Assembly: GCF_000807255.1 (NCBI RefSeq)
Contig: NZ_CP009268.1
Coordinates: 2,820,384-2,884,383 of the forward strand
Length of the DNA: 64,000 nt
Reading direction: 5' to 3'
Source of the DNA: Clostridium pasteurianum DSM 525 = ATCC 6013
GTDB lineage: Bacteria > Bacillota > Clostridia > Clostridiales > Clostridiaceae
Every line of letters starts with the position of its first letter. The stretch's first letter is position 1. The notes below the pieces were generated by a model. That model was not told the origin of the DNA, did not search any database, and saw only the letters and a list, made by a program, of their open reading frames with translations. The translations under genes were made by a program, and so were the position numbers. Shown here one piece after another: positions 11,536-64,000 of the stretch.

Positions 11536-13997
11536 ATTTAAATACATCCTATGTTAAGGTTCAACGGTGGTAGTTTAGATACAGATATAAGTCAATATGT
11601 AATTTAAATACATCCTATGTTAAGGTTCAACTGATGCTAAAGTTGCATTAACAATCATTTTTTGTGCATTTAAATACATCCTATGTTAAGGTTCAACATG
11701 CAATTTTATACCAAATGCCGCAGATATTTGTATTTAAATACATCCTATGTTAAGGTTCAACTATACTTTTATAATTTCATCCTTTGTAACACCTTCCATT
11801 TAAATACATCCTATGTTAAGGTTCAACCATAGATAAATTCACCTACCTTTCTATTTTTGTTTTATTTAAATACATCCTATGTTAAGGTTCAACGTAGAAG
11901 AATATGAGCTCTTTACAAGTTCATTAATTATTTAAATACATCCTATGTTAAGGTTCAACCATCTCTGCCAGTGCTATGTTTGCAATTGGTAAAGAATTTA
12001 AATACATCCTATGTTAAGGTTCAACTATTTAACTTCTGAACACTCTTCAATCCATATTATATTTAAATACATCCTATGTTAAGGTTCAACCCACTAAATA
12101 AATAAACTCTATCGCCATCTTGTTTGGATTTAAATACATCCTATGTTAAGGTTCAACATTTAGGTGATTGCCAAGTTCCGTTGGAGTTCCAAGATTTAAA
12201 TACATCCTATGTTAAGGTTCAACTTTATATTCAAAACTAATTCCTTTTTAGTCATTACTATTTAAATACATCCTATGTTAAGGTTCAACTACAAATAAAT
12301 TCAATTCTTCCGTAGAAAATGAAAATTTAAATACATCCTATGTTAAGGTTCAACTCAATACATATCTCTTTGGTATAATTAGCTTCTCATTTAAATACAT
12401 CCTATGTTAAGGTTCAACACATATGAGTATGGTCTTTATCACATTCTATTGCAAATTTAAATACATCCTATGTTAAGGTTCAACAAAAACAAGAAACAAG
12501 TCTTATCAAATATGAAATGTCATTTAAATACATCCTATGTTAAGGTTCAACTGATTTTTCATCGCCAAGATCAGCATACCAAATTTGCATTTAAATACAT
12601 CCTATGTTAAGGTTCAACGTACTATTAGCAACTGCAACATCTTCTTCAACTTTTATTTAAATACATCCTATGTTAAGGTTCAACTATAATGTATGCTTTG
12701 GTATTGCACCTATCCTATTTATTTAAATACATCCTATGTTAAGGTTCAACACTTTTTCTATCTCAGTCCAATACACAGTAATAATATTTAAATACATCCT
12801 ATGTTAAGGTTCAACTTTCTTCATCGCAATGAGGACAATCAAATTTTACATTTAAATACATCCTATGTTAAGGTTCAACAAATCACTTCAACTTCCTCAC
12901 TGTTTACAGTTACAAATTTAAATACATCCTATGTTAAGGTTCAACCCTTTTTCTGTCAAGTTCTTTTTTTATTTTTTCACAATTTAAATACATCCTATGT
13001 TAAGGTTCAACCAAACTGGCTAGAAGAAACGAAACGGATGTAATAAATTTAAATACATCCTATGTTAAGGTTCAACAAGAAGTGATTCTTCATCCTGATA
13101 ATTCCACTTAGTATTTAAATACATCCTATGTTAAGGTTCAACTATCTATTGTTACTGGTGTAGCTTTACCTGCTAGCATTTAAATACATCCTATGTTAAG
13201 GTTCAACTATTCTTTAAAATGTCTTTTGTGTTTAATACATTATATTTAAATACATCCTATGTTAAGGTTCAACAAACAAAGGTTAATAGCTTAGCTTTTG
13301 TTTTGAGGATTTAAATACATCCTATGTTAAGGTTCAACTTACCTGTTACACTAAATTCATCAACCAAGATTTTATTTAAATACATCCTATGTTAAGGTTC
13401 AACTTACTTTTTCTCTGCTGTTAGACGGTATATCAACGCAATTTAAATACATCCTATGTTAAGGTTCAACCAGTTTGCCTTTAATTCTTGTTTCTTGCCA
13501 TTCACTATTTAAATACATCCTATGTTAAGGTTCAACACTAGATGCTCTCTACAAGATATTGAGTTCACATATATTTAAATACATCCTATGTTAAGGTTCA
13601 ACGGTAAGGAGCATAAGAGCATAGATAAAGATGACTGATTTAAATACATCCTATGTTAAGGTTCAACCCAACTATACCATCTACAGGAAGATGCAATATA
13701 GTCATTTAAATACATCCTATGTTAAGGTTCAACGCTGACTGGCATTTAATTTTTTAGCAATTTCGACCTGATTTAAATACATCCTATGTTAAGGTTCAAC
13801 CTGTGGTACTTACCTTTAAAGCAATGCTGTTACTCAAATTTAAATACATCCTATGTTAAGGTTCAACGGAGTAAGACCACCAGTAATTGCAATCCCTGTC
13901 CAATTTAAATACATCCTATGTTAAGGTTCAACTAGAGCAAGGTAATGTAATTTAGATACTTAAAATTATTTAAATACATCCTATGTTAAGGTTCAAC
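11536..13997 (-). CRISPR. Type I-B CRISPR array, 38 repeats and 37 spacers
   Basis: Thirty-eight copies of a 30-bp repeat were counted, from 11536-11565 to 13968-13997, all identical by eye. On the transcribed (minus) strand the repeat begins GTTGAACCTTAACAT and ends GTATTTAAAT. Spacers are 34-37 bp and none repeats another. Direction is inferred from similarity to known clostridial I-B repeats of the GTTGAACC...ATTTAAAT kind, so the leader is on the right and the newest spacer is 13933-13967. Identity of every repeat, even at the old end, suggests a well-maintained array. Short translated spacer matches are given under findings. The PAM cannot be derived from the window. Confidence 0.98.
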
Positions 13998-50043: not shown

Positions 50044-50196
50044 AAAATCCACCTCTTCTTTATATTAAAAAACCTTGTCATTAATATTTATACAGCTTTT
50101 TTTATATTTATTCATACATTAACATAAATTCATTTTCCCTGTCAACCTACGTTATGTGCTTATATTTCTTACTTTATGCTCATTACATAAAAATAA

Positions 50197-50222
50197 GAGC
50201 CTTCTACTATGGCAGAAGGCTC
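50197..50222 (-). terminator. PyrR-controlled attenuator hairpin of carA
   Basis: On the minus strand GAGCCTTCT and AGAAGGCTC form a 9-bp stem with an 8-base loop, followed by a T-rich run (TTATTTTTATG). It lies about 150 bases before carA and 63 bases after the PyrR box. Confidence 0.85.
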
Positions 50223-50284
50223 GTTGCATACGAAATAAAGCTATACATAAAAATGCTGCTTTTACACAATTATATACAATCTTA

Positions 50285-50316
50285 CCTTTTCAGCCTCTCT
50301 GGACCAAATTTAAAGG
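50285..50316 (-). promoter_or_regulatory. PyrR binding loop in the carA leader
   Basis: The minus strand has CCTTTAAATTTGGTCCAGAG directly followed by AGGCTG and AAAAGG. GTCCAGAGAGGCT matches the known anti-antiterminator loop bound by UMP-loaded PyrR. The 32-bp layout is shared with the two pyrB-leader sites. A TATAAT for the promoter is at 50342-50337. The 345-base gap 50044-50388 has no other gene. Confidence 0.88.
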
Positions 50317-50388
50317 TCGTATTTAATTTTCTATATATTATAATACACTATTATTACATATATATCAATTATTTATTTTAAAAATAAT

Positions 50389-52117: not shown

Positions 52118-52699
52118 TCAAACTATATTTCTGCTGCCAGGTTTTATGTATGGTATACCTTTTTTGCAAAGAGGACAATTTTCTTTTTCATAACTTTCAA
52201 TTTCAAGCTTAACGGCACTGTATATAGGGAATTCAGTTTTTACATCTTTAGCTCTTCTATCTACTATACAGCATAGTGCTACTACTTCCGCTCCAATGTT
52301 TCTTAAAATTTTTACGACTTCAAGAGAAGATTTTCCTGTAGTAATAACATCTTCTGAAATTATTACCTTATCTCCTTTTTTAACTTCAAATCCTCTTTTA
52401 ATAGTCATTTTACCATCTACTCTTTCAGCAAAAATTCCTGGTTTTCCTGTTTGTCTTGCCAGTTCATAAGAAACCAAAACTCCTCCCATAGCAGGTCCAA
52501 CGATTATATCAAAATCTACATCTTTTATTTTATCTTTAATTACCTGTATAACTTTTTCTGCCTTATCAGGGTGCTGTAAAAGTTTAGCGCATTGACAATA
52601 TCTTTCACTATGTCTCCCTGATGATAGTAAAAAATGTCCTTCTAAAAGAGCCTCTGACTCTTTTAGTATTTCTATAACTTTGTTATCTGTATTTTCCAT
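52118..52699 (-). CDS. pyrE: Orotate phosphoribosyltransferase PyrE
   Basis: A 193-residue enzyme that joins orotate and PRPP to make OMP. The PRPP loop is [20 protein letters not shown] near 108-127 (type I PRTase). The flexible-loop and phosphate-binding residues [12 protein letters not shown] near 22 and [11 protein letters not shown] near 62 are intact. The ending [19 protein letters not shown] has a Cys pair common to this longer PyrE group. Last gene of the pyr operon, 145 bases after pyrD. Confidence 0.95.
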
Positions 52700-52844
52700 A
52701 ATTTAAACACTCTCCTAAAATTTATCCTAAATAATTTTGTAAAAACTAAATTAGCTTATAGCAGCCAAAAATTCTTAAATATTTCATGTAAAACTAATTT
52801 TAGTAAAAAATCCTGATACTTAATATTGTTAACACTATATTAAG

Positions 52845-53744
52845 TTATTTAATTATACCGATTATTTCTGAAAGATTATTTATTCCTTCTCTTTCCATAA
52901 ATTTTTCAATATCCTCTATTATATCAACACATATATCCGGTTTCATAAAATTAGCTGTTCCAACCTGCACTGCAGTTGCTCCTGCCATGATAAATTCTAT
53001 AGCATCCTTTCCATTAGATATACCACCCATACCAACTACAGGTACATCTACCGCTTTTGCTACCTCATATACCATTCTTAAAGCAATAGGTTTTATACAG
53101 GGACCAGAAAGTCCTGCGCTTACATTGTCAAATACAGGTCTCCTTTTATTTATGTCAATTGCCATAGCCTTAAAAGTATTAACCAAAGATATAGAATCAG
53201 CTCCTGCTTCAGTACATTTAACGGCCATATCCACTATATCCTCAGCATTAGGTGACAATTTTACCATAAGAGGTTTATGACAAAGTTTTCTCACTTTGCT
53301 GACTACATCAAAGGCAACTTTAGATTTTATGCCAAAAGCCATTCCACCATGCTTAACATTTGGGCAAGATATATTTAATTCTATAATATCTACATCTGTC
53401 TTATCAAGCAATTCAATGCCCTTTTCATAATCCTCCGTTGTTCCTCCGCCTAAATTAGCTATTACTACAGTATTGAGCTTTTTCATATCTTCTAGTTCCT
53501 CTTTTATGAAATGCTCAACACCCGGATTCTGTAATCCTACACTATTCATTATTCCACTAGCTACTTCATAAATTCTCATACCATTATTACCTTCTTTAGG
53601 CATAATAGTCAAGCCTTTCGAAGAAATTCCCCCAAGTCTACCTACATCAAAATAATTCATATACTCATTTCCAAAACCAAAAGTTCCAGAGGCAGCAATT
53701 ACAGGATTCTTAAAATCAACTCCAGAAATACTAACATTAGTCAT
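52845..53744 (-). CDS. pyrD: Dihydroorotate dehydrogenase type 1B, catalytic subunit PyrD
   Basis: A 299-residue FMN enzyme oxidising dihydroorotate to orotate, with NAD as final acceptor through PyrK. The catalytic Cys is in [11 protein letters not shown] near 128-138, the type 1 loop. KLSPNAEDI near 162 and [13 protein letters not shown] near 246 are FMN- and phosphate-binding. The start overlaps the pyrK stop by 8 bases, consistent with the PyrD-PyrK complex of low-GC Gram-positives. Confidence 0.96.
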
Positions 53745-54477
53745 TTATTACTAGCTCCTCTCCTAAGAATACAGGACCTTCTTTACAAGATCTCTTTCTT
53801 CCATCTTTAGTTTTACAAGTACATACAAGACATGCACCGATTCCACAGGCCATTCTATTTTCCATAGATACATATAATGGCACCTTTTTTTCATCACACA
53901 TTTTAATTATCTTTGACATCATTATTTCTGGTCCACAGCAAACTACCACATCATAATTTTCCACATTAAGCAAATCTGTTACATATCCTTTATGTCCAAC
54001 TTCACCATTTTCTGTGGATAAGTATAATTTATTAACATTTTTTCCCACATCATCCACAGTTTTACTACCGCTTCTAAACCCAGCATATAAATCCAATGAA
54101 GAATTTTTTAATTTCTTGGCTAAATACAGCATTGGTGCAATACCAATACCTCCTGCCACTAAAGCAACTTTCCCCTTCAATTTTTCCAAAGGGAAACCAT
54201 TTCCAAGCGGTCCTGTAAGTTTTATTTCGTCACCTTTTTTTAATTTAGTTAAAATTTCTGTTCCTCTGCCGCACACTCTATATAAAAATTTTATTTTTTC
54301 CTCATCTTTATCATATATGCTTATAGGCCTGGATAATACAGGTTCTTCATCCCAAGCTCTTAACAGATAAAACTGACCAGGATTACCCTCAAATTTCCCA
54401 TCTATAGTAATCTCATATATATCTTCCTCTATCTTTTCATTACTAAATACGTTTTTCACCATATATTTTTCGCTCAT
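53737..54477 (-). CDS. pyrK: Dihydroorotate dehydrogenase electron-transfer subunit PyrK
   Basis: A 246-residue FAD/[2Fe-2S] subunit. [19 protein letters not shown] near 42-60 binds [14 protein letters not shown] near 107 binds NAD, and [17 protein letters not shown] then SCKEG near 206-232 supply the four iron-sulfur Cys. It takes electrons from PyrD to NAD. It overlaps pyrD by 8 bases. The 185-base gap to pyrF contains the family B palindromic element. Confidence 0.95.
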
Positions 54478-54513
54478 GAGTTCCCTCCAAATATAAATAT
54501 TTTAGGCATGTGA

Positions 54514-54652
54514 AAATAAATAGTAAGTCAAAGATGCGACGAATATTTTGAATCCAACATGGAAGCAGGTGACCAGGATAGTGGGCTATCTGAGGGTTCT
54601 GCCGACGCAGTAGGATTCAAAATAGGCTAGCATACTGACTAGTTATTTATTT
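54514..54652. repeat. Palindromic element family B inside the pyr operon
   Basis: About 139 bp with nested inverted repeats. Outer arms AAATAAATAGTAAGTCA (54514-54530) and TGACTAGTTATTTATTT (54636-54652) match at 15 of 17 positions. Inside are ATGC/GCAT, ATTTTGAATCC/GGATTCAAAAT, GCAG/CTGC and GATAG/CTATC with a TGGG loop. It has no gene. The layered stems, higher GC core and placement suggest a miniature inverted-repeat element or a structured RNA. No second copy was seen in the window. Confidence 0.7.
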
Positions 54653-54661
54653 GAATATGCC

Positions 54662-55525
54662 TTAACTTATGTGCTTTAAAATATCATCCCGCATATTTAT
54701 AGAAGCATTTCTTGCAGCTTTTTCAAAACTATGCTCTCCATTCTCAACTTTCTTATACGCAAGAAGTATACCCCTTGAAGAGTTTACAATTCCTCCATTA
54801 CCCTTTGATAAGTAATTAGCCACATCTTCAGCAGTTCCTCCTTGTGCACCATAACCTGGTATTAAGAAAAATGTTGATTCATATTTATCTCTTATCTGTT
54901 TTCCTTCAAAGCCAGTAGTACATCCAACTACAGCTCCTATAGAACTGTATCCACATTCTCCAAGACAATCTTTACCAATTTCATATATCTTATCACCCAC
55001 AGCATTATACACTCTTTCACCGTTTTCAACATCTATATATTGAATATCCTTTGAACCAGGGTTTGATGTTCTAAGAAGAATAAACGCTCCCTTTTCCTTG
55101 TTTTTAATATACGGAACATATGATTCTACACTATCAAAACCCATATAAGGATTTAAAGTAACAAAATCACTTTCAAAATCTCCTTCAAAATGAGCTTTTG
55201 CATACATTTCGGCAGTTTTTGCTATATCCCCTCTTTTTATATCAGCTATAGATATAGCATTCTCATTCTTTATGTACTTTAAAGTCTTTTCATAAGCTTT
55301 GAGACCATTGATTCCATAAGCTTCATAATATGCAATTTGAACTTTATAACAGGCAGCCACATCAATAGTTTCATCAATTATTTTTTTATTAAAATTAAAT
55401 ATTGCATCTTCCAAATTATCGTATTTATTCAAAAACCATTTTGGTATGTATTCTATATCAGTATCTAGTCCCAAGCAAACATGCCCATTTTTTTCAACTC
55501 TTTGGTAAAGTTCATCTATAATCAT
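54662..55525 (-). CDS. pyrF: Orotidine-5'-phosphate decarboxylase PyrF (long type)
   Basis: A 287-residue OMP decarboxylase of the longer type 2 group. CLGLDTDIEYIPKWF is the N-terminal motif of that group. ISIADIKRGDIAKTAEMY near 92 carries the catalytic Asp-Lys pair. FFLIPGYGAQGGTAEDV near 219 is the phosphate loop. It makes UMP from OMP, the last step of the pathway. It starts 11 nt after pyrC, and is separated from pyrK by a palindromic element. Confidence 0.95.
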   Translation of the reverse strand: MIIDELYQRVEKNGHVCLGLDTDIEYIPKWFLNKYDNLEDAIFNFNKKIIDETIDVAACYKVQIAYYEAYGINGLKAYEKTLKYIKNENAISIADIKRGDIAKTAEMYAKAHFEGDFESDFVTLNPYMGFDSVESYVPYIKNKEKGAFILLRTSNPGSKDIQYIDVENGERVYNAVGDKIYEIGKDCLGECGYSSIGAVVGCTTGFEGKQIRDKYESTFFLIPGYGAQGGTAEDVANYLSKGNGGIVNSSRGILLAYKKVENGEHSFEKAARNASINMRDDILKHIS

Positions 55526-55536
55526 AATAAATCCTC

Positions 55537-56724
55537 CTACATGTTTTGAAAAACAATTTTACCTGCTCTTATAGTTTTAATAACTGTTCCATATAACTCC
55601 ATCCCATTAAAAGGTGTATTTTTTCCTTTTGAGTGGAATTTTTGTGAATCAACAGTATATTTATTATCCAAATCTATGATTGCTAAGTCTCCTTCATATC
55701 CTATAGATATTTTTCCCTTATTGATATTTAGTATATCAGCAGGATTTTTTGACATTATCTCTGAAAGCTTATTTATAGTTAAATTTCCCTCTTTAACAAG
55801 TTTTGTATAACATACAGAAAATGAAGTTTCTATCCCCGATATTCCACAGGCTCCCTTTTCCTTATCCTCTTTACTATGAGGTGCATGATCTGTTCCTATA
55901 GCATCCACATACCCTTTTCTAATGGCATTTATAATATAATCTACATCTTCAGCCTCTCTTATTGGCGGATTAACTTTGTATAAATTTTCCCCGGTTAAAG
56001 CTATATGATGTGGTGTTACTTCACAGGTTATATTAAAACCTTCTTTTTTAGCTTCAATAATGTCTTTCATAGCTTCTTTTGTACTAACATGAGATAGATG
56101 CAAATGACATCCAGTAAATTTAGCCAGTGTAATATCTCTTTCTGTCATCATATTTTCTGACAATCTTGTACTTATAGGAGTAATTTCTTCATCCTCTGCA
56201 TGGGACATGACCACAAAATTTCTCTTATTTGCTACAACCATAGCATCATGCATTATCCTGTCGCTGTTTACACCTTTTCCATCATCAGATATGCACTTTA
56301 CAGAATCATCAATTTTTTCAAGATGGCTTATATCTTTACCTTGAAGATCTCTGGTAATACTAACAGTTTGATATGCATCCACAAGACCTATCTCTTTGGC
56401 TTTATTTACAACATAATTTACTGTTCTCATATCACTGCATACAGGCTTAGTGTTTCCCATAAGATTTACAGTAGTGTATCCACCTCTTACTGCCGCTCTA
56501 CTTCCTGTTTTTATATCCTCTTTGTATTCTAATCCCGGATCTCTAAAATGGCTGTGCAAATCTACAAAGGCAGGTGTAACTACATATCCCTTTGCATCAA
56601 GAATATCACAATCTTTTTGTAAATTATAGCCTATTTCTTCTATAATTCCATTATTAATATATATATCACCAACAAAATCTGAGGTATAATCTATAACTCT
56701 TCCGTTCTTTACTAACAGTTCCAT
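55537..56724 (-). CDS. pyrC: Dihydroorotase PyrC
   Basis: A 395-residue type I dihydroorotase of the amidohydrolase fold. FVDLHSHFRDPGLEYKEDI near 53-71 supplies the first two metal His and the substrate Arg. VMSHAEDEE near 172 and HLHLSHVST near 205 supply later His. AIGTDHAPHSKEDK near 276 supplies the Asp. It closes carbamoyl aspartate to dihydroorotate. The 215-base gap upstream contains family A copy 2. No fused domain is present. Confidence 0.96.
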   Translation of the reverse strand: MELLVKNGRVIDYTSDFVGDIYINNGIIEEIGYNLQKDCDILDAKGYVVTPAFVDLHSHFRDPGLEYKEDIKTGSRAAVRGGYTTVNLMGNTKPVCSDMRTVNYVVNKAKEIGLVDAYQTVSITRDLQGKDISHLEKIDDSVKCISDDGKGVNSDRIMHDAMVVANKRNFVVMSHAEDEEITPISTRLSENMMTERDITLAKFTGCHLHLSHVSTKEAMKDIIEAKKEGFNITCEVTPHHIALTGENLYKVNPPIREAEDVDYIINAIRKGYVDAIGTDHAPHSKEDKEKGACGISGIETSFSVCYTKLVKEGNLTINKLSEIMSKNPADILNINKGKISIGYEGDLAIIDLDNKYTVDSQKFHSKGKNTPFNGMELYGTVIKTIRAGKIVFQNM

Positions 56725-56748
56725 TTTTTTCGCTCCTTATATCACATT

Positions 56749-56884
56749 TTGAAGCAAGTTCTTAATTCAGGTGGGGATTCTTTTACCCCATCTGAATTTT
56801 AGAACTGCGAATGCATGGCTTACTTGGCGTTGAACTCCCACTTGAAGAAGGGGGAGACTTACGCCAAGTTAGTCAGGTTAAAAG
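56749..56884. repeat. Palindromic element family A, copy 2 (IS200/IS605-like MITE)
   Basis: Collinear with 45351-45486. Both hairpins are intact: TTCAGGTGGGG pairs with CCCCATCTGAA, and ACTTGGCGT with ACGCCAAGT. The inner CTCCC/GGGAG pair is complete here. It lies between pyrI and pyrC, so it is transcribed within the operon. The second hairpin's CTCCC-ACTT-x-AAG-GGGGAG layout resembles right-end hairpins of IS200/IS605 elements. The rest of the gap (56885-56939) holds no gene. Confidence 0.72.
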
Positions 56885-56939
56885 AAAATCTTTATTAAAT
56901 ATATAAGCTATTTTGTTAATTATTTTTATTTTATATACT

Positions 56940-57362
56940 CTATATTGTCTCTATTTCATCACAATACTCACATCTGTATTCCCCTTTTTCTTTATCTACC
57001 AAATGAAATATATGAGGAACATACTTTTCAACAGAAGTTATACACCTTGGATTTTTACACTTAATTACATTTTCAACTCTTTCCGGTAAACTGAGCTTTT
57101 TCTTTTCCTTGATTTTTTCGTCCTCTATTATATTAACCGTAATATTAGGATCTAAGAGACCAAGCATTTTAAAATCTAAATCTATTACATTTTCAATTTT
57201 AATAATGTCTTTTTTCTTATCTTTTGTACTATTTACATTCATAATCAAAGCTGTAGGAAAGTCCGCATCTAGTAAATTCAGATAATTATAAATCTTTATT
57301 CCATGACCTGCTTTTATGTGATCTATAACTATGCCATTTTTTATACTATTTATAGTAATCAA
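56940..57362 (-). CDS. pyrI: Aspartate carbamoyltransferase regulatory subunit PyrI
   Basis: A 140-residue regulatory chain that binds nucleotide effectors and joins PyrB trimers. The N-terminal allosteric domain has [19 protein letters not shown] near 7. The C-terminal zinc domain has four Cys in [11 protein letters not shown] near 106-116 and YRCEYCDE near 132. The start is TTG at 57362, directly after the pyrB stop, so it is translationally coupled. PyrI in clostridia supports feedback control by CTP or ATP. Confidence 0.94.
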
Positions 57363-58286
57363 TTAGCACACCCCCAAAAGCTTAGCTATTAACGCCATTC
57401 TTACATACATACCAAATTTCGCCTGTATAAAATAACAAGCTCTTTTATCTTCATCTACTTCATAATCTATTTCATTAACTCTAGGAAGAGGATGCAGTAT
57501 TATCATATCATCTTTTGCATTATCAAGTTTTTGCCTATCCAATATATAACTGTCTTTTAACCTTATATAATCTTCTTCATTAAAAAATCTCTCTCTTTGA
57601 ACTCTTGTCATATAAAGTATGTCTAATCCATCTATTACATCTTCCAAATTTTCTGCTTCCACATATTCTATATTGTTTTTTTCAAGTATTTCTTTTTTTA
57701 TGTACTCTGGTATTGTTAACTCTTTAGGAGAAATTAATACAAGTCTATTATTTTCATATCTAGATATTGCCTTTATAAGAGAGTGAACTGTTCTTCCAAA
57801 TTTCAAGTCACCACATATACCAATGGTAAAATTTGAAAGACTTCCTTTCATTTTTCTTATAGTTAAAAGATCTGTCAGTGTCTGAGTTGGATGTTGATGT
57901 CCTCCATCACCTGCATTTATCACAGGAATCTCTGAATACATGGAGGCTATTTTAGGTGCTCCTTCTTTTGAATGCCTCATAGCAGTTATGTCCGCATAGC
58001 AAGATACTATTCTGATAGTATCTGCTACAGTTTCTCCTTTTGACACGGAACTGGAATTAGGCTCTGAAAAACCAACCACCTGTCCTCCAAGTCTTAGCAT
58101 AGCAGCCTCAAAACTAAATCTAGTTCTTGTACTAGGTTCATAAAAAAGCGTTGCTAAAATTTTTCCTTCTGCTACATGCAAATATTCTTTGGGATTTTCT
58201 ATTATATTATCAGCCAGAGAAAATATTTCTTCAAGCTCTTCTATAGTAAAATCCATAGGATCAATAAGACTTCTTCCCTTTAACAT
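57363..58286 (-). CDS. pyrB: Aspartate carbamoyltransferase catalytic subunit PyrB
   Basis: A 307-residue catalytic chain making carbamoyl aspartate. [13 protein letters not shown] near 50 is the carbamoyl-phosphate motif. [18 protein letters not shown] near 128 and [11 protein letters not shown] near 262 complete the active site. Start at ATG 58286, six bases after AAGGAGG; an ATG six bases earlier also lies within that site. The 3' arm of a PyrR-box motif overlaps the Shine-Dalgarno. First gene of the pyr operon. Confidence 0.96.
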
Positions 58287-58295
58287 AATCATCCT

Positions 58296-58327
58296 CCTTC
58301 TTAGTCTCCCTGTACTAAATTTAAAGG
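58296..58327 (-). promoter_or_regulatory. PyrR-box motif overlapping the pyrB ribosome site
   Basis: The minus strand reads CCTTTAAATTTAGTACAGGG and then AGACTAAGAAGG, running directly into AGG and the pyrB start. It shares the 32-bp frame of the other two PyrR boxes (CCTTTAAATT...AGACT...GAAGG). No terminator lies between it and the gene. Occupancy would hide the Shine-Dalgarno, so translational repression is inferred. Confidence 0.75.
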
Positions 58328-58389
58328 TATTAAAATTGATAAGATAAAATCAATCTTTTTCTTGTATATTTATTTTAGTGCATTAAAAA

Positions 58390-58411
58390 ATGCCTCCACA
58401 AAAGAAGGCAT
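58390..58411 (-). terminator. Attenuator hairpin in the pyrB leader
   Basis: On the minus strand ATGCCTTC and GGAGGCAT (one G-T pair) form an 8-bp stem with a 6-base loop, followed by six T. It lies 20 bases after the first PyrR box. Confidence 0.85.
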
Positions 58412-58430
58412 AAAAATTCCATTACTTTTA

Positions 58431-58462
58431 CCTTCCCAGTCTCACGGAACTGAATTTAAAGG
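58431..58462 (-). promoter_or_regulatory. PyrR binding loop in the pyrB leader
   Basis: The minus strand has CCTTTAAATTCAGTTCCGTG followed by AGACTGGGAAGG. It corresponds to the anti-antiterminator loop bound by PyrR, upstream of a terminator, as in the carA leader. The core differs slightly from the carA site (TTCCGTGAGACT versus GTCCAGAGAGGCT). Confidence 0.82.
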
Positions 58463-58478
58463 CTATCTCACTTATAAT

Positions 58479-58507
58479 ATGATATCATTATAGTCTAAAA
58501 TTGTCAA
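58479..58507 (-). promoter_or_regulatory. pyr operon promoter
   Basis: On the minus strand TTGACA (complement of 58502-58507) and TATCAT (complement of 58479-58484) are 17 bases apart. Transcription would start about 10 bases before the PyrR loop. Beyond it, 58508-58740 is AT-rich without a gene. Confidence 0.75.
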
Positions 58508-62576: not shown

Positions 62577-64000
62577 TTAAGCACTCTTTTTAAGTGGAAA
62601 AAGATGTGTTCCAGTTCTATCTGACTGGATTTTATTATGTAGCTTATTTATATTATGTGCCATAGCTAACAGAATACTTTCCGCCAAAACATTCTTTTTA
62701 CCTCTACTTAGATATCTACGAAATCCCATATCCTGTTTTATCTCTGCAAAAGAGCCTTCGGCTTGAATACTTCGATTCATTCTTAACTCGCAACCTTCTT
62801 CACTTACAATTCTTTCAAGATTCTCTTTGCGAAGCATGTTGAAGAGCTTTGAAGTTTCAAGATTTTTAACTCTATCCTCTAATGGCGTTTTACAGTTATG
62901 TCCTTTTATACATTTATTTTTTTGATTACAATTACTGCAATCCTCACATGTGTAGATTGTTTTTTTCACTTACATAACCAGTCTTACTTTTTCTTTTTAT
63001 TATTCTATTTACTGTTAGCTTCTTATTATTTTTGCAAGTATAATAATCACCAAATTCATCATAGTCCATGTTTTCTATTCGGCTTATATCATCCTTATAT
63101 TTTCTTGTTTTAGCTATTTCATAATTTGCTGGCTTAATATATGATAACTGTCCATTTTCTTTAGTATAAACATAATTTTCTTCACTCTCATAGCCTGAGT
63201 CTGTAGTTATTTTTAAATATCTAAAATACAAGAAGTTCTCCATGCTTTTTAGAAATGGAATCAACGTTGTGGTGTCCGCAGGCTGATCGCCTACAGTAAG
63301 CCACACTATATATTCAGAATCAACTCCATGCTGCACATTGTAAGCAGGTTTTAACTGACCGTTTTTCATGGCGTCTTCTTTCATCCTCATAAAAGTTGCA
63401 TCTTTATCTGTCTTCGAATAGCTATTACGCTTACCGCAGATATGGATTTTCTGTGTGTATTCTTTTAGCTTATTAAGATATTCCTCGAGTTTTTCAATAG
63501 AACGTTGAATTGGAGTTTTCCTTTTACCACATCCATGTACAAATTCAATATTTTCTTCTTGTTTCAAGGCATAAAGTTTCTTGCGTAGCTTCTTTACATG
63601 CTTTATTTTTACTCTGTTTTCATATACGAGCTTTAGTCCGTATAGTTCTTCGCATTCAGCTACAAAATCAGCTAATTTATAAAGTAGTCTCTCCAAATTT
63701 TTTGAAACTGCTTTTTTCCAAACGAAAGTATACTTATTGGCACATGCCTCTATCTTTGTACCGTCAATAAATATAGCGTCCCCTAATATTTCTCCAATTT
63801 CATAAAGAAAGTTTGTCATTTCTGCCATAATTGTTTCTGCGCATTGAGAAAGGTGGATACTACGGAATCTTGCAAAGGTAGAATGATCTGGTACTGGTGA
63901 ACCCTCTAAAAGGTACATGAAATTTACATCTCTTTTGCAGGAGGTTTCCATTTCCCTAGAAGAATATCTATGATTCATGTAAGAATAAAGTACAATCTTC
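62577..64000 (-). pseudogene. IS1182-family transposase, frameshifted and partial
   Basis: The upstream frame runs from the edge (codons KIVLYSYMNHRYSSREMET before and after 63978) to a stop at 62944. It includes SPVPDHSTFARFR near the start, the DDE-type FIDGTKIEACAN near 63765, and TDSGYESEENYVYTK near 63190. The rest, YTCEDCSNCNQKNKC to 62577, is in the +1 frame. The break is in a run of seven A near 62965. Six A would restore one protein. It may be dead, or the run may vary. Confidence 0.88.

What the first reader, a model, noticed from the sequence alone, without database searches (positions are those of the whole stretch)
58286..58507. Two PyrR boxes in one pyrB leader: transcription attenuator plus a box on the Shine-Dalgarno
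The leader has a promoter, a PyrR loop (58431-58462), a terminator (58390-58411), then a second copy of the same 32-bp layout (58296-58327). The 3' arm of that second copy merges with the pyrB Shine-Dalgarno, and there is no second terminator. PyrR attenuation is established in Bacillus, and PyrR translational repression in mycobacteria. Both layers in one clostridial leader would give stepped control of the entry enzyme of the pathway. Conserved ends and core in all three boxes of this window argue against chance.
Basis: partly seen in the sequence, partly recalled or inferred. Interest (0 to 1): 0.75.

Follow-up and report, generated by a model that had tools for sequence, protein, structure and literature searches.

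The report
Double PyrR switch before pyrB
The first gene of the pyrimidine-making operon in this clostridium carries two copies of the docking site for the regulator PyrR, one set up to stop the RNA being made and one sitting on the ribosome start signal, and the pair is kept in most of the related clostridia examined, so one sensor probably controls the pathway at two successive steps.

Summary
On the minus strand the pyrB leader has a promoter, PyrR box 1 (58462-58431), an antiterminator/terminator pair (terminator 58411-58390), then PyrR box 2 (58327-58296), whose 3' arm AAGG is the start of the Shine-Dalgarno AAGGAGG. No terminator-like site follows box 2. It is neither chance nor peculiar to this genome. 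With a covariance model of the box, 136 of 150 fetched same-family pyrB leaders hold both boxes, 10 only the upstream one, 4 only the SD one. A terminator lies between the boxes in 133 of 136, after box 2 in 0 of 136. Box 2 shows compensatory changes and is better conserved than its flank (0.82 against 0.41 identity, 13 genera). pyrR is in the genome. The three strongest boxes of the genome are these two and the carA one. Best reading: Bacillus-type PyrR attenuation plus PyrR occlusion of the pyrB ribosome site on read-through mRNA. Each layer is known or proposed elsewhere; I saw no account of the two in one leader, but the main PyrR papers are not held. PyrR binding and any effect on translation remain untested.

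The parts
58479..58507 (-). Promoter of the pyrB operon (TTGACA, 17 nt, TATCAT with TG before it); transcription would start a few bases before box 1
   Evidence: consensus scan, 11 of 12 matches; start site inferred, not mapped
58431..58462 (-). PyrR box 1 (anti-antiterminator) CCTTTAAATTCAGTTCCGTGAGACTGGGAAGG
   Evidence: RF00515 41.2 bits
58403..58436 (-). Antiterminator: 3' arm of box 1 pairs with the 5' arm of the terminator; excludes both
   Evidence: minimum-energy fold
58390..58411 (-). Intrinsic terminator ATGCCTTCTTTTGTGGAGGCAT followed by a T run
58296..58327 (-). PyrR box 2 CCTTTAAATTTAGTACAGGGAGACTAAGAAGG; its 3' arm AAGG is the first part of the pyrB Shine-Dalgarno
   Evidence: best R1 hit of the own genome, 48.4 bits (R1 was built from sequences that include this one); conserved and covarying
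58293..58299 (-). Shine-Dalgarno AAGGAGG of pyrB
   Evidence: sequence; spacing in relatives
57363..58286 (-). pyrB, aspartate carbamoyltransferase (start at 58286 preferred; a second ATG lies at 58292)
   Evidence: ORF; many relatives start MLKGR; name by reading the sequence
56940..57362 (-). pyrI, regulatory chain of ATCase, start codon directly after the pyrB stop, so probably coupled in translation
   Evidence: identity by reading the sequence, not searched
52118..56724 (-). Rest of the pyr operon in order pyrC, pyrF, pyrK, pyrD, pyrE
   Evidence: ORFs; names by reading the sequence
50285..50316 (-). Third PyrR box, classical attenuator before carA
   Evidence: RF00515 62.9 bits over 50189-50320

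Best explanation
The pyrB leader is a two-stage PyrR switch. Stage 1, transcription: PyrR with UMP holds box 1, which frees the 5' arm of the terminator from the antiterminator, and RNA polymerase stops before pyrB. Stage 2, translation: RNA that reads through carries box 2; PyrR with UMP clamps its weak lower stem CCUU/AAGG, which contains the first part of the SD, so ribosomes cannot start pyrB and, by coupling or by loss of the untranslated mRNA, probably pyrI and the genes behind. Stage 1 can act only on nascent RNA, stage 2 also on mRNA already made. Shown here: the anatomy, its conservation, base-pair covariation in the upper stem, terminator placement, presence of pyrR. Inferred: PyrR binding to either box, occlusion of the SD, which affinity comes first, and the effect on downstream genes.
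For: Both boxes in 136 of 150 same-family leaders, in 34 of 35 genera sampled; gap between boxes 55-438 nt, median about 94. Terminator between boxes 133 of 136, after box 2 0 of 136; resampled intervals 6 of 272. In box 2, 21 cells carry a change on both sides of a pair against 7.5 in shuffles (0 of 500 as high), spread over three pairs, and paired cells fall from 95.8% to 68.4% or less when slid. A version without any box score, anchored only on the SD of all 150 leaders (48 rows after thinning), also shows excess pairing in the upper stem: 0.767 against a shuffled mean of 0.658 and maximum of 0.719. Box 2 identity across 13 genera is 0.82, its 5' arm 0.96, the 32 nt upstream 0.41. The box end lies 8-14 nt before the chosen start in 116 of 140 leaders and 3-6 nt in 24; the own leader is among the 24 because the first of its two ATGs was taken. 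Folded with its flanks, the upper stem of box 2 is stable (median pair probability 0.99, 32-nt boxes) but the lower stem with the SD is marginal (0.195, n 136), as wanted for a site that a protein closes. pyrR: 247.9 bits, cut-off 138; nearest solved chains are PyrR proteins; pyrR found in 194 of 206 family genomes. Two boxes with the second on the SD also in named Caloramator, Fonticella, Thermobrachium, Peptoclostridium, Tepidibacter and Vallitalea loci, in four loci of family f20 and in L302 of family f99.
Against: No binding or expression data. In box 2 the number of pairs with a change on both sides (3) is reached by 99 of 500 shuffles and the number of further pair types (10) by 39 of 500. 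Lower stem pairs of box 2 never vary (3 of 4) or vary on one side, so they give no covariation support, and the SD itself would keep the 3' arm constant. The SD is already partly paired without PyrR in the model (median unpaired probability 0.35), so some occlusion may not need PyrR. The pair closing the loop is not formed in 9 of 33 box 2 sequences against 1 of 30 box 1 sequences, so box 2 may bind PyrR weakly. 10 of 150 leaders, 8 of them among the 43 of genus g3, lack a box 2 found by the model. 45 of 80 named loci, many of them outside the Clostridia, have no box found near pyrB. Ribosome-profiling papers on Clostridium ljungdahlii and acetogens mention neither pyrB nor PyrR in their main text.
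Confidence: 0.8

Rival explanations
1. Box 2 is a PyrR-independent SD-sequestering hairpin that only sets a low basal translation rate of pyrB.
For: The SD is partly paired in the predicted ensemble without any protein.
Against: Selection on an SD hairpin alone would not keep the PyrR loop CNGNGA and the 5' arm CCTTTAA (0.86 and 0.96 identity across 13 genera), nor the same layout as box 1 and the carA box.
Confidence: 0.07
2. Box 2 binds PyrR but serves mainly to raise its local concentration for box 1 (cooperative or bridging binding by PyrR oligomers); SD overlap is a by-product of the AAGG arm.
For: Several PyrR entries among the solved structures hold more than one chain; two sites per leader.
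Against: The gap between boxes varies from 55 to 438 nt; box 2 is made only after the terminator, too late to help box 1 on the nascent RNA; box 2 lies on or directly against the SD in the 27 named two-box loci (read by eye) and ends 3-14 nt before a start codon in the 140 family leaders that have it.
Confidence: 0.06
3. Box 2 belongs to a ribosome-dependent attenuator: PyrR blocks a leader ORF whose translation would stop a downstream terminator from folding (the Thermus-type scheme, recalled).
For: That layout does exist in other lineages: SD-box on short ORFs of 6-31 aa with a T-run hairpin overlapping or touching the ORF, before carA, pyrC or pyrB, in L290, L291, L295, L296 and L300.
Against: In the window the ORF behind box 2 is pyrB itself, and 0 of 136 two-box leaders have a terminator after box 2 within the stretch examined, up to 61 nt into pyrB.
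Confidence: 0.03
4. Box 2 is a decaying duplicate of box 1 without function.
For: 8 of 43 leaders of genus g3 have no box 2 found by the model.
Against: Kept in 140 of 150 leaders and, over 13 genera, more conserved than box 1 (0.82 against 0.71).
Confidence: 0.03

Closest known systems
Bacillus subtilis pyr attenuators (PyrR anti-antiterminator, Rfam RF00515)
   Same: Box 1: binding hairpin, overlapping antiterminator, intrinsic terminator, pyrR in the genome. The PyrR mechanism was read in passages of PMC4347634.
   Different: Box 2 has no antiterminator or terminator and lies on the SD of the structural gene; neither pyrB box reaches the Rfam gathering score.
Mycobacterium smegmatis pyr leader: PyrR translational repression (Fields and Switzer 2007; title seen in a reference list, content recalled, paper not held)
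   Same: A PyrR box covering the ribosome site with no terminator (recalled).
   Different: Here it comes second, behind a complete transcription attenuator in the same leader.
Thermus ZO5 pyr leader (Van de Casteele 1997, recalled only): PyrR with a translating ribosome instead of an antiterminator
   Same: PyrR box proposed near a ribosome site.
   Different: There it is said to govern a leader peptide and a terminator; the window has neither behind box 2. A layout of that kind was met in L290, L291, L295, L296 and L300.
c-di-GMP riboswitch Bc1 with dual regulation (PMC11218506, title and start of abstract seen in a listing)
   Same: One ligand and, by its title, dual regulation in one leader.
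   Different: A riboswitch, not a protein with two separate sites.

Membership tests
PyrR binding site / pyr attenuator (RF00515) | PyrR hairpin with CNGNGA loop and CCUU/AAGG lower stem | tested here: met
   box 1, box 2 and the carA box
PyrR binding site / pyr attenuator (RF00515) | Score at or above the Rfam gathering cut-off of 54 | tested here: not met
   box 1 41.2, box 2 30.4 bits; only the carA leader passes with 62.9
PyrR binding site / pyr attenuator (RF00515) | Terminator after the box and antiterminator overlapping both | tested here: met
   for box 1. Not met for box 2: 0 of 136
PyrR binding site / pyr attenuator (RF00515) | pyrR gene in the genome | tested here: met
PyrR binding site / pyr attenuator (RF00515) | UMP-dependent binding by PyrR | not testable with these tools
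   needs gel shift or filter binding
PyrR translational repression (mycobacterial type) | PyrR box overlaps the SD of the regulated gene | tested here: met
   box 2 in the window and 140 of 150 family leaders
PyrR translational repression (mycobacterial type) | No terminator between that box and the gene | tested here: met
   0 of 136
PyrR translational repression (mycobacterial type) | Protein falls with pyrimidines while mRNA does not | not testable with these tools
   needs reporters or ribosome profiling with and without uracil
Thermus-type ribosome-mediated PyrR attenuation (recalled) | Box on the SD of a short leader ORF followed by a terminator | tested here: not met
   the ORF is pyrB; no terminator. 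Met in five loci of other lineages

The most novel reading that the evidence does not exclude
One regulator and one ligand acting twice in series on the same leader, first on transcription and then on translation, is the old and standard control of pyrB across Clostridiaceae and neighbouring families; box 2, with its often unpaired loop-closing position, is tuned to a different affinity from box 1, which gives two thresholds and lets the cell silence pyr mRNA that has already been made.
Probability: 0.4. Interest if true: 0.65.

Novelty: new variant of a known kind. Interest (0 to 1): 0.52.

Why it matters
PyrR is a textbook RNA-binding attenuation protein, and the two output modes are usually told as belonging to different bacteria (recalled). 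Here both stand in one leader, and the pair is kept through most of a family and is met in others. It gives a natural, conserved system in which transcriptional and translational control by the same protein could be separated by point mutations, and a possible reason why pyr expression in acetogens would not follow mRNA alone. The two pyrB boxes score below the Rfam cut-off, so annotation that relies on it would miss them.

Tried and rejected
Chance: rejected. Relic of duplication and PyrR-free hairpin: see rivals. A DNA operator is unlikely because changes in box 2 are compensatory RNA pairs. Second attenuator behind box 2: no terminator found. The genome hit L004 was read and I saw no PyrR box in it. 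The box before pyrR (L003) is degenerate but is followed by a terminator, by eye. Long-range pairings in the minimum-energy fold of the whole leader (box 1 5' arm with pyrB codons) were taken as spurious and not pursued. Literature: ten searches, read as capped listings of titles and abstract starts, showed no paper on two PyrR boxes in one leader; passages were read in PMC10672894, PMC3766115, PMC2965389, PMC4347634, PMC6203783 and PMC11651100 (PMC10684804: no occurrence of the terms). The main PyrR review and two PyrR papers are not held, so a prior description cannot be excluded.

Limits of the counts. Of 189 family genomes with pyrB at the threshold (206 searched) I examined 150 leaders; for the other 39, whose pyrB is least similar, no leader was fetched. 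From (117, 121 and 57 rows) I carried 286 of 295 rows into; the 9 left out were weak (18.2 bits or less). One weak upstream box at 17.2 bits (L168) was kept; without it the two-box count is 135. For the covariation counts I used 33 of 35 thinned box 2 and 30 of 37 thinned box 1 sequences, dropping mostly those out of register, all pre-selected at consensus score 18.5 or more; 30 of these were picked by hand for model R1. One search is the check without that selection; its rows include leaders without a box and some one base out of register. R1 contains box 2 sequences, so its bit scores do not compare boxes fairly, and the conservation figures rest on 13 genera with 32-nt boxes. In whole-genome searches R1 scored only 150 of thousands of candidates per genome and missed the pyrR box, 22 of 30 relatives had a match, and G123 and G153 had none although searches find their boxes. 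The class search (66 of 293 genomes with a box) used stricter filters and missed G002 and G005, whose upstream boxes one search finds, so its blanks mean little. The phylum pattern hit 24 of 398 genomes; 8, the own one included, have the rest of a box, 16 look like chance. Shuffles in my scripts are first-order Markov resamplings.

Full report
What is there. The window lies in a single-contig genome of 4,352,101 bases; the size fits Clostridium autoethanogenum (recalled, not tested). Genes pyrB, pyrI, pyrC, pyrF, pyrK, pyrD and pyrE run on the minus strand from 58,292 to 52,118, and carA has its own leader at 50,320 (names by reading). The pyrB leader reads, in order: promoter 58507-58479, box 1 58462-58431, terminator 58411-58390, box 2 58327-58296, AAGGAGG 58299-58293, ATG 58286. 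The minimum-energy fold pairs the 3' arm of box 1 with the 5' arm of the terminator, the antiterminator of the Bacillus scheme.

Is it more than chance. A search with a model of the box (R1) finds three strong places in the genome: box 2 48.4 bits, carA 46.6, box 1 44.6; the next is 21.1 (150 of 6661 first-look candidates were scored, and box 1 and box 2 were among the sequences of the model). The leader of pyrR has a degenerate box followed by a terminator, found by Rfam at 31.3 bits but not by R1. In 30 relatives 22 had a match; where the place of pyrB is known, the best match lies just before pyrB. pyrR is present, 179 aa, and its nearest solved chains are PyrR proteins.

Conservation. pyrB was found in 189 of 206 genomes of the family and pyrR in 194 of 206. 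I examined 150 pyrB leaders (30 as loci, 120 fetched). A consensus scan already showed the pair (2 of 1500 resampled leaders reached the threshold). With R1 the count is 136 with both boxes, 10 with only the upstream box, 4 with only the SD box; both boxes occur in 34 of 35 genera. Some exceptions are soft: G114 keeps a degenerate box 2, and the three SD-only leaders of genus g23 still show a terminator-like T-run hairpin upstream, by eye. Eight of the ten leaders without box 2 fall in genus g3. A terminator-like hairpin lies between the boxes in 133 of 136, and after box 2 in none; in resampled intervals it is found in 6 of 272.

Selection on box 2 as RNA. Between 13 genera, box 2 is 82% identical, box 1 71%, the 32 nt before box 2 41% and those before box 1 39%. 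The upper stem of box 2 carries changes on both sides at three pairs, e.g. G-C to A-U and U-A to C-G, in 21 cells; box 1 at five pairs, in 40 cells. The cell counts exceed every shuffle; the counts of pairs do not (99 and 147 of 500 shuffles reach them). When I took the sequence before the SD of all 150 leaders without any score for the box, the excess of pairing remained (0.767, shuffled maximum 0.719). The lower stem hardly varies and says nothing.

How box 2 would work. In the predicted ensemble its upper stem is formed and its lower stem, which holds AAGG of the SD, is not firmly formed, though the SD is partly paired in other ways. A protein that clamps the whole hairpin would close the SD. 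The box lies behind the terminator, so it exists only on RNA that has escaped attenuation. That makes it a second lock on leakage and on mRNA made before UMP rose. These last points are inference.

A difference between the boxes. The pair that closes the CNGNGA loop is standard in 29 of 30 box 1 but in only 24 of 33 box 2 sequences; in all 32-nt boxes, 2 of 39 unique box 1 and 19 of 60 unique box 2 sequences have A opposite G there. This may mean weaker binding and thus a different threshold.

Beyond the family. Among 80 named loci, 27 have both boxes, including Caloramator, Fonticella, Thermobrachium, Peptoclostridium, Tepidibacter and Vallitalea; box 2 lies on or directly against the SD in these. 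In family f20 of the class, L259, L273, L275 and L277 show the same tandem at pyrB. At phylum scale, L302 shows the tandem at pyrB, L294 the SD box alone, and L290, L291, L295, L296 and L300 show the SD box on a short ORF that overlaps or touches a T-run hairpin (-11.7 to -24.4 kcal/mol), ahead of carA, pyrC or pyrB. So SD-placed PyrR boxes appear in two uses: on the enzyme gene itself, or on a leader ORF whose translation would keep a terminator open.

Relation to what is known. PyrR attenuation in Bacillus is established (passages of PMC4347634; PMC3766115 lists RF00515 with the number 211, passages). PyrR translational repression in M. smegmatis is known to me from the title in a reference list and from recall. 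In C. [quoted passage not shown] PMC11651100 lists a PyrR RNA of Clostridioides difficile in a table (passage). I saw no account of two PyrR boxes in one leader, within the searches named under Tried and rejected. Verdict: a real, conserved, two-level variant of a known kind of regulator, with function inferred.

Noticed in passing
L290, L291, L295, L296, L300 (position about 1500 in each): In other lineages of the phylum the SD-overlapping PyrR box governs a short leader ORF (9, 15, 31, 26, 6 aa) that overlaps or touches a terminator-like hairpin before carA, pyrC or pyrB: a layout for ribosome-dependent PyrR attenuation.
   Followed up: partly
L295 and L296, upstream of the SD box: A second PyrR-like hairpin with the loop CCGAGA but with AAUUUU-type arms instead of CCUU/AAGG stands before the SD box of the pyrC leader ORF (by eye).
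   Followed up: no
window 56730-56885 (-): The gap between pyrI and pyrC holds a 156-nt hairpin-rich intergenic element; 40 places including itself, 90% identity or more, are listed in the genome (40 of 163 candidates scored, so there may be more).
   Followed up: partly
L003:1505-1600 (G000:C1 about 2011200): The leader of pyrR has a degenerate PyrR box and a terminator-like hairpin, so pyrR may regulate itself.
   Followed up: partly
window 11536-13997 (+): CRISPR array of 38 repeats matching Rfam CRISPR-DR3.
   Followed up: no
window 62577-63978 (-): Two overlapping ORFs in different frames read like the two parts of one transposase, apparently frameshifted (identity from reading only).
   Followed up: no
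L264:about 1500: In family f29 an SD-placed PyrR box precedes a 23-aa ORF about 270 nt before pyrB; the terminator scan found nothing there, although by eye a long A+T-rich hairpin ends in a T run.
   Followed up: partly
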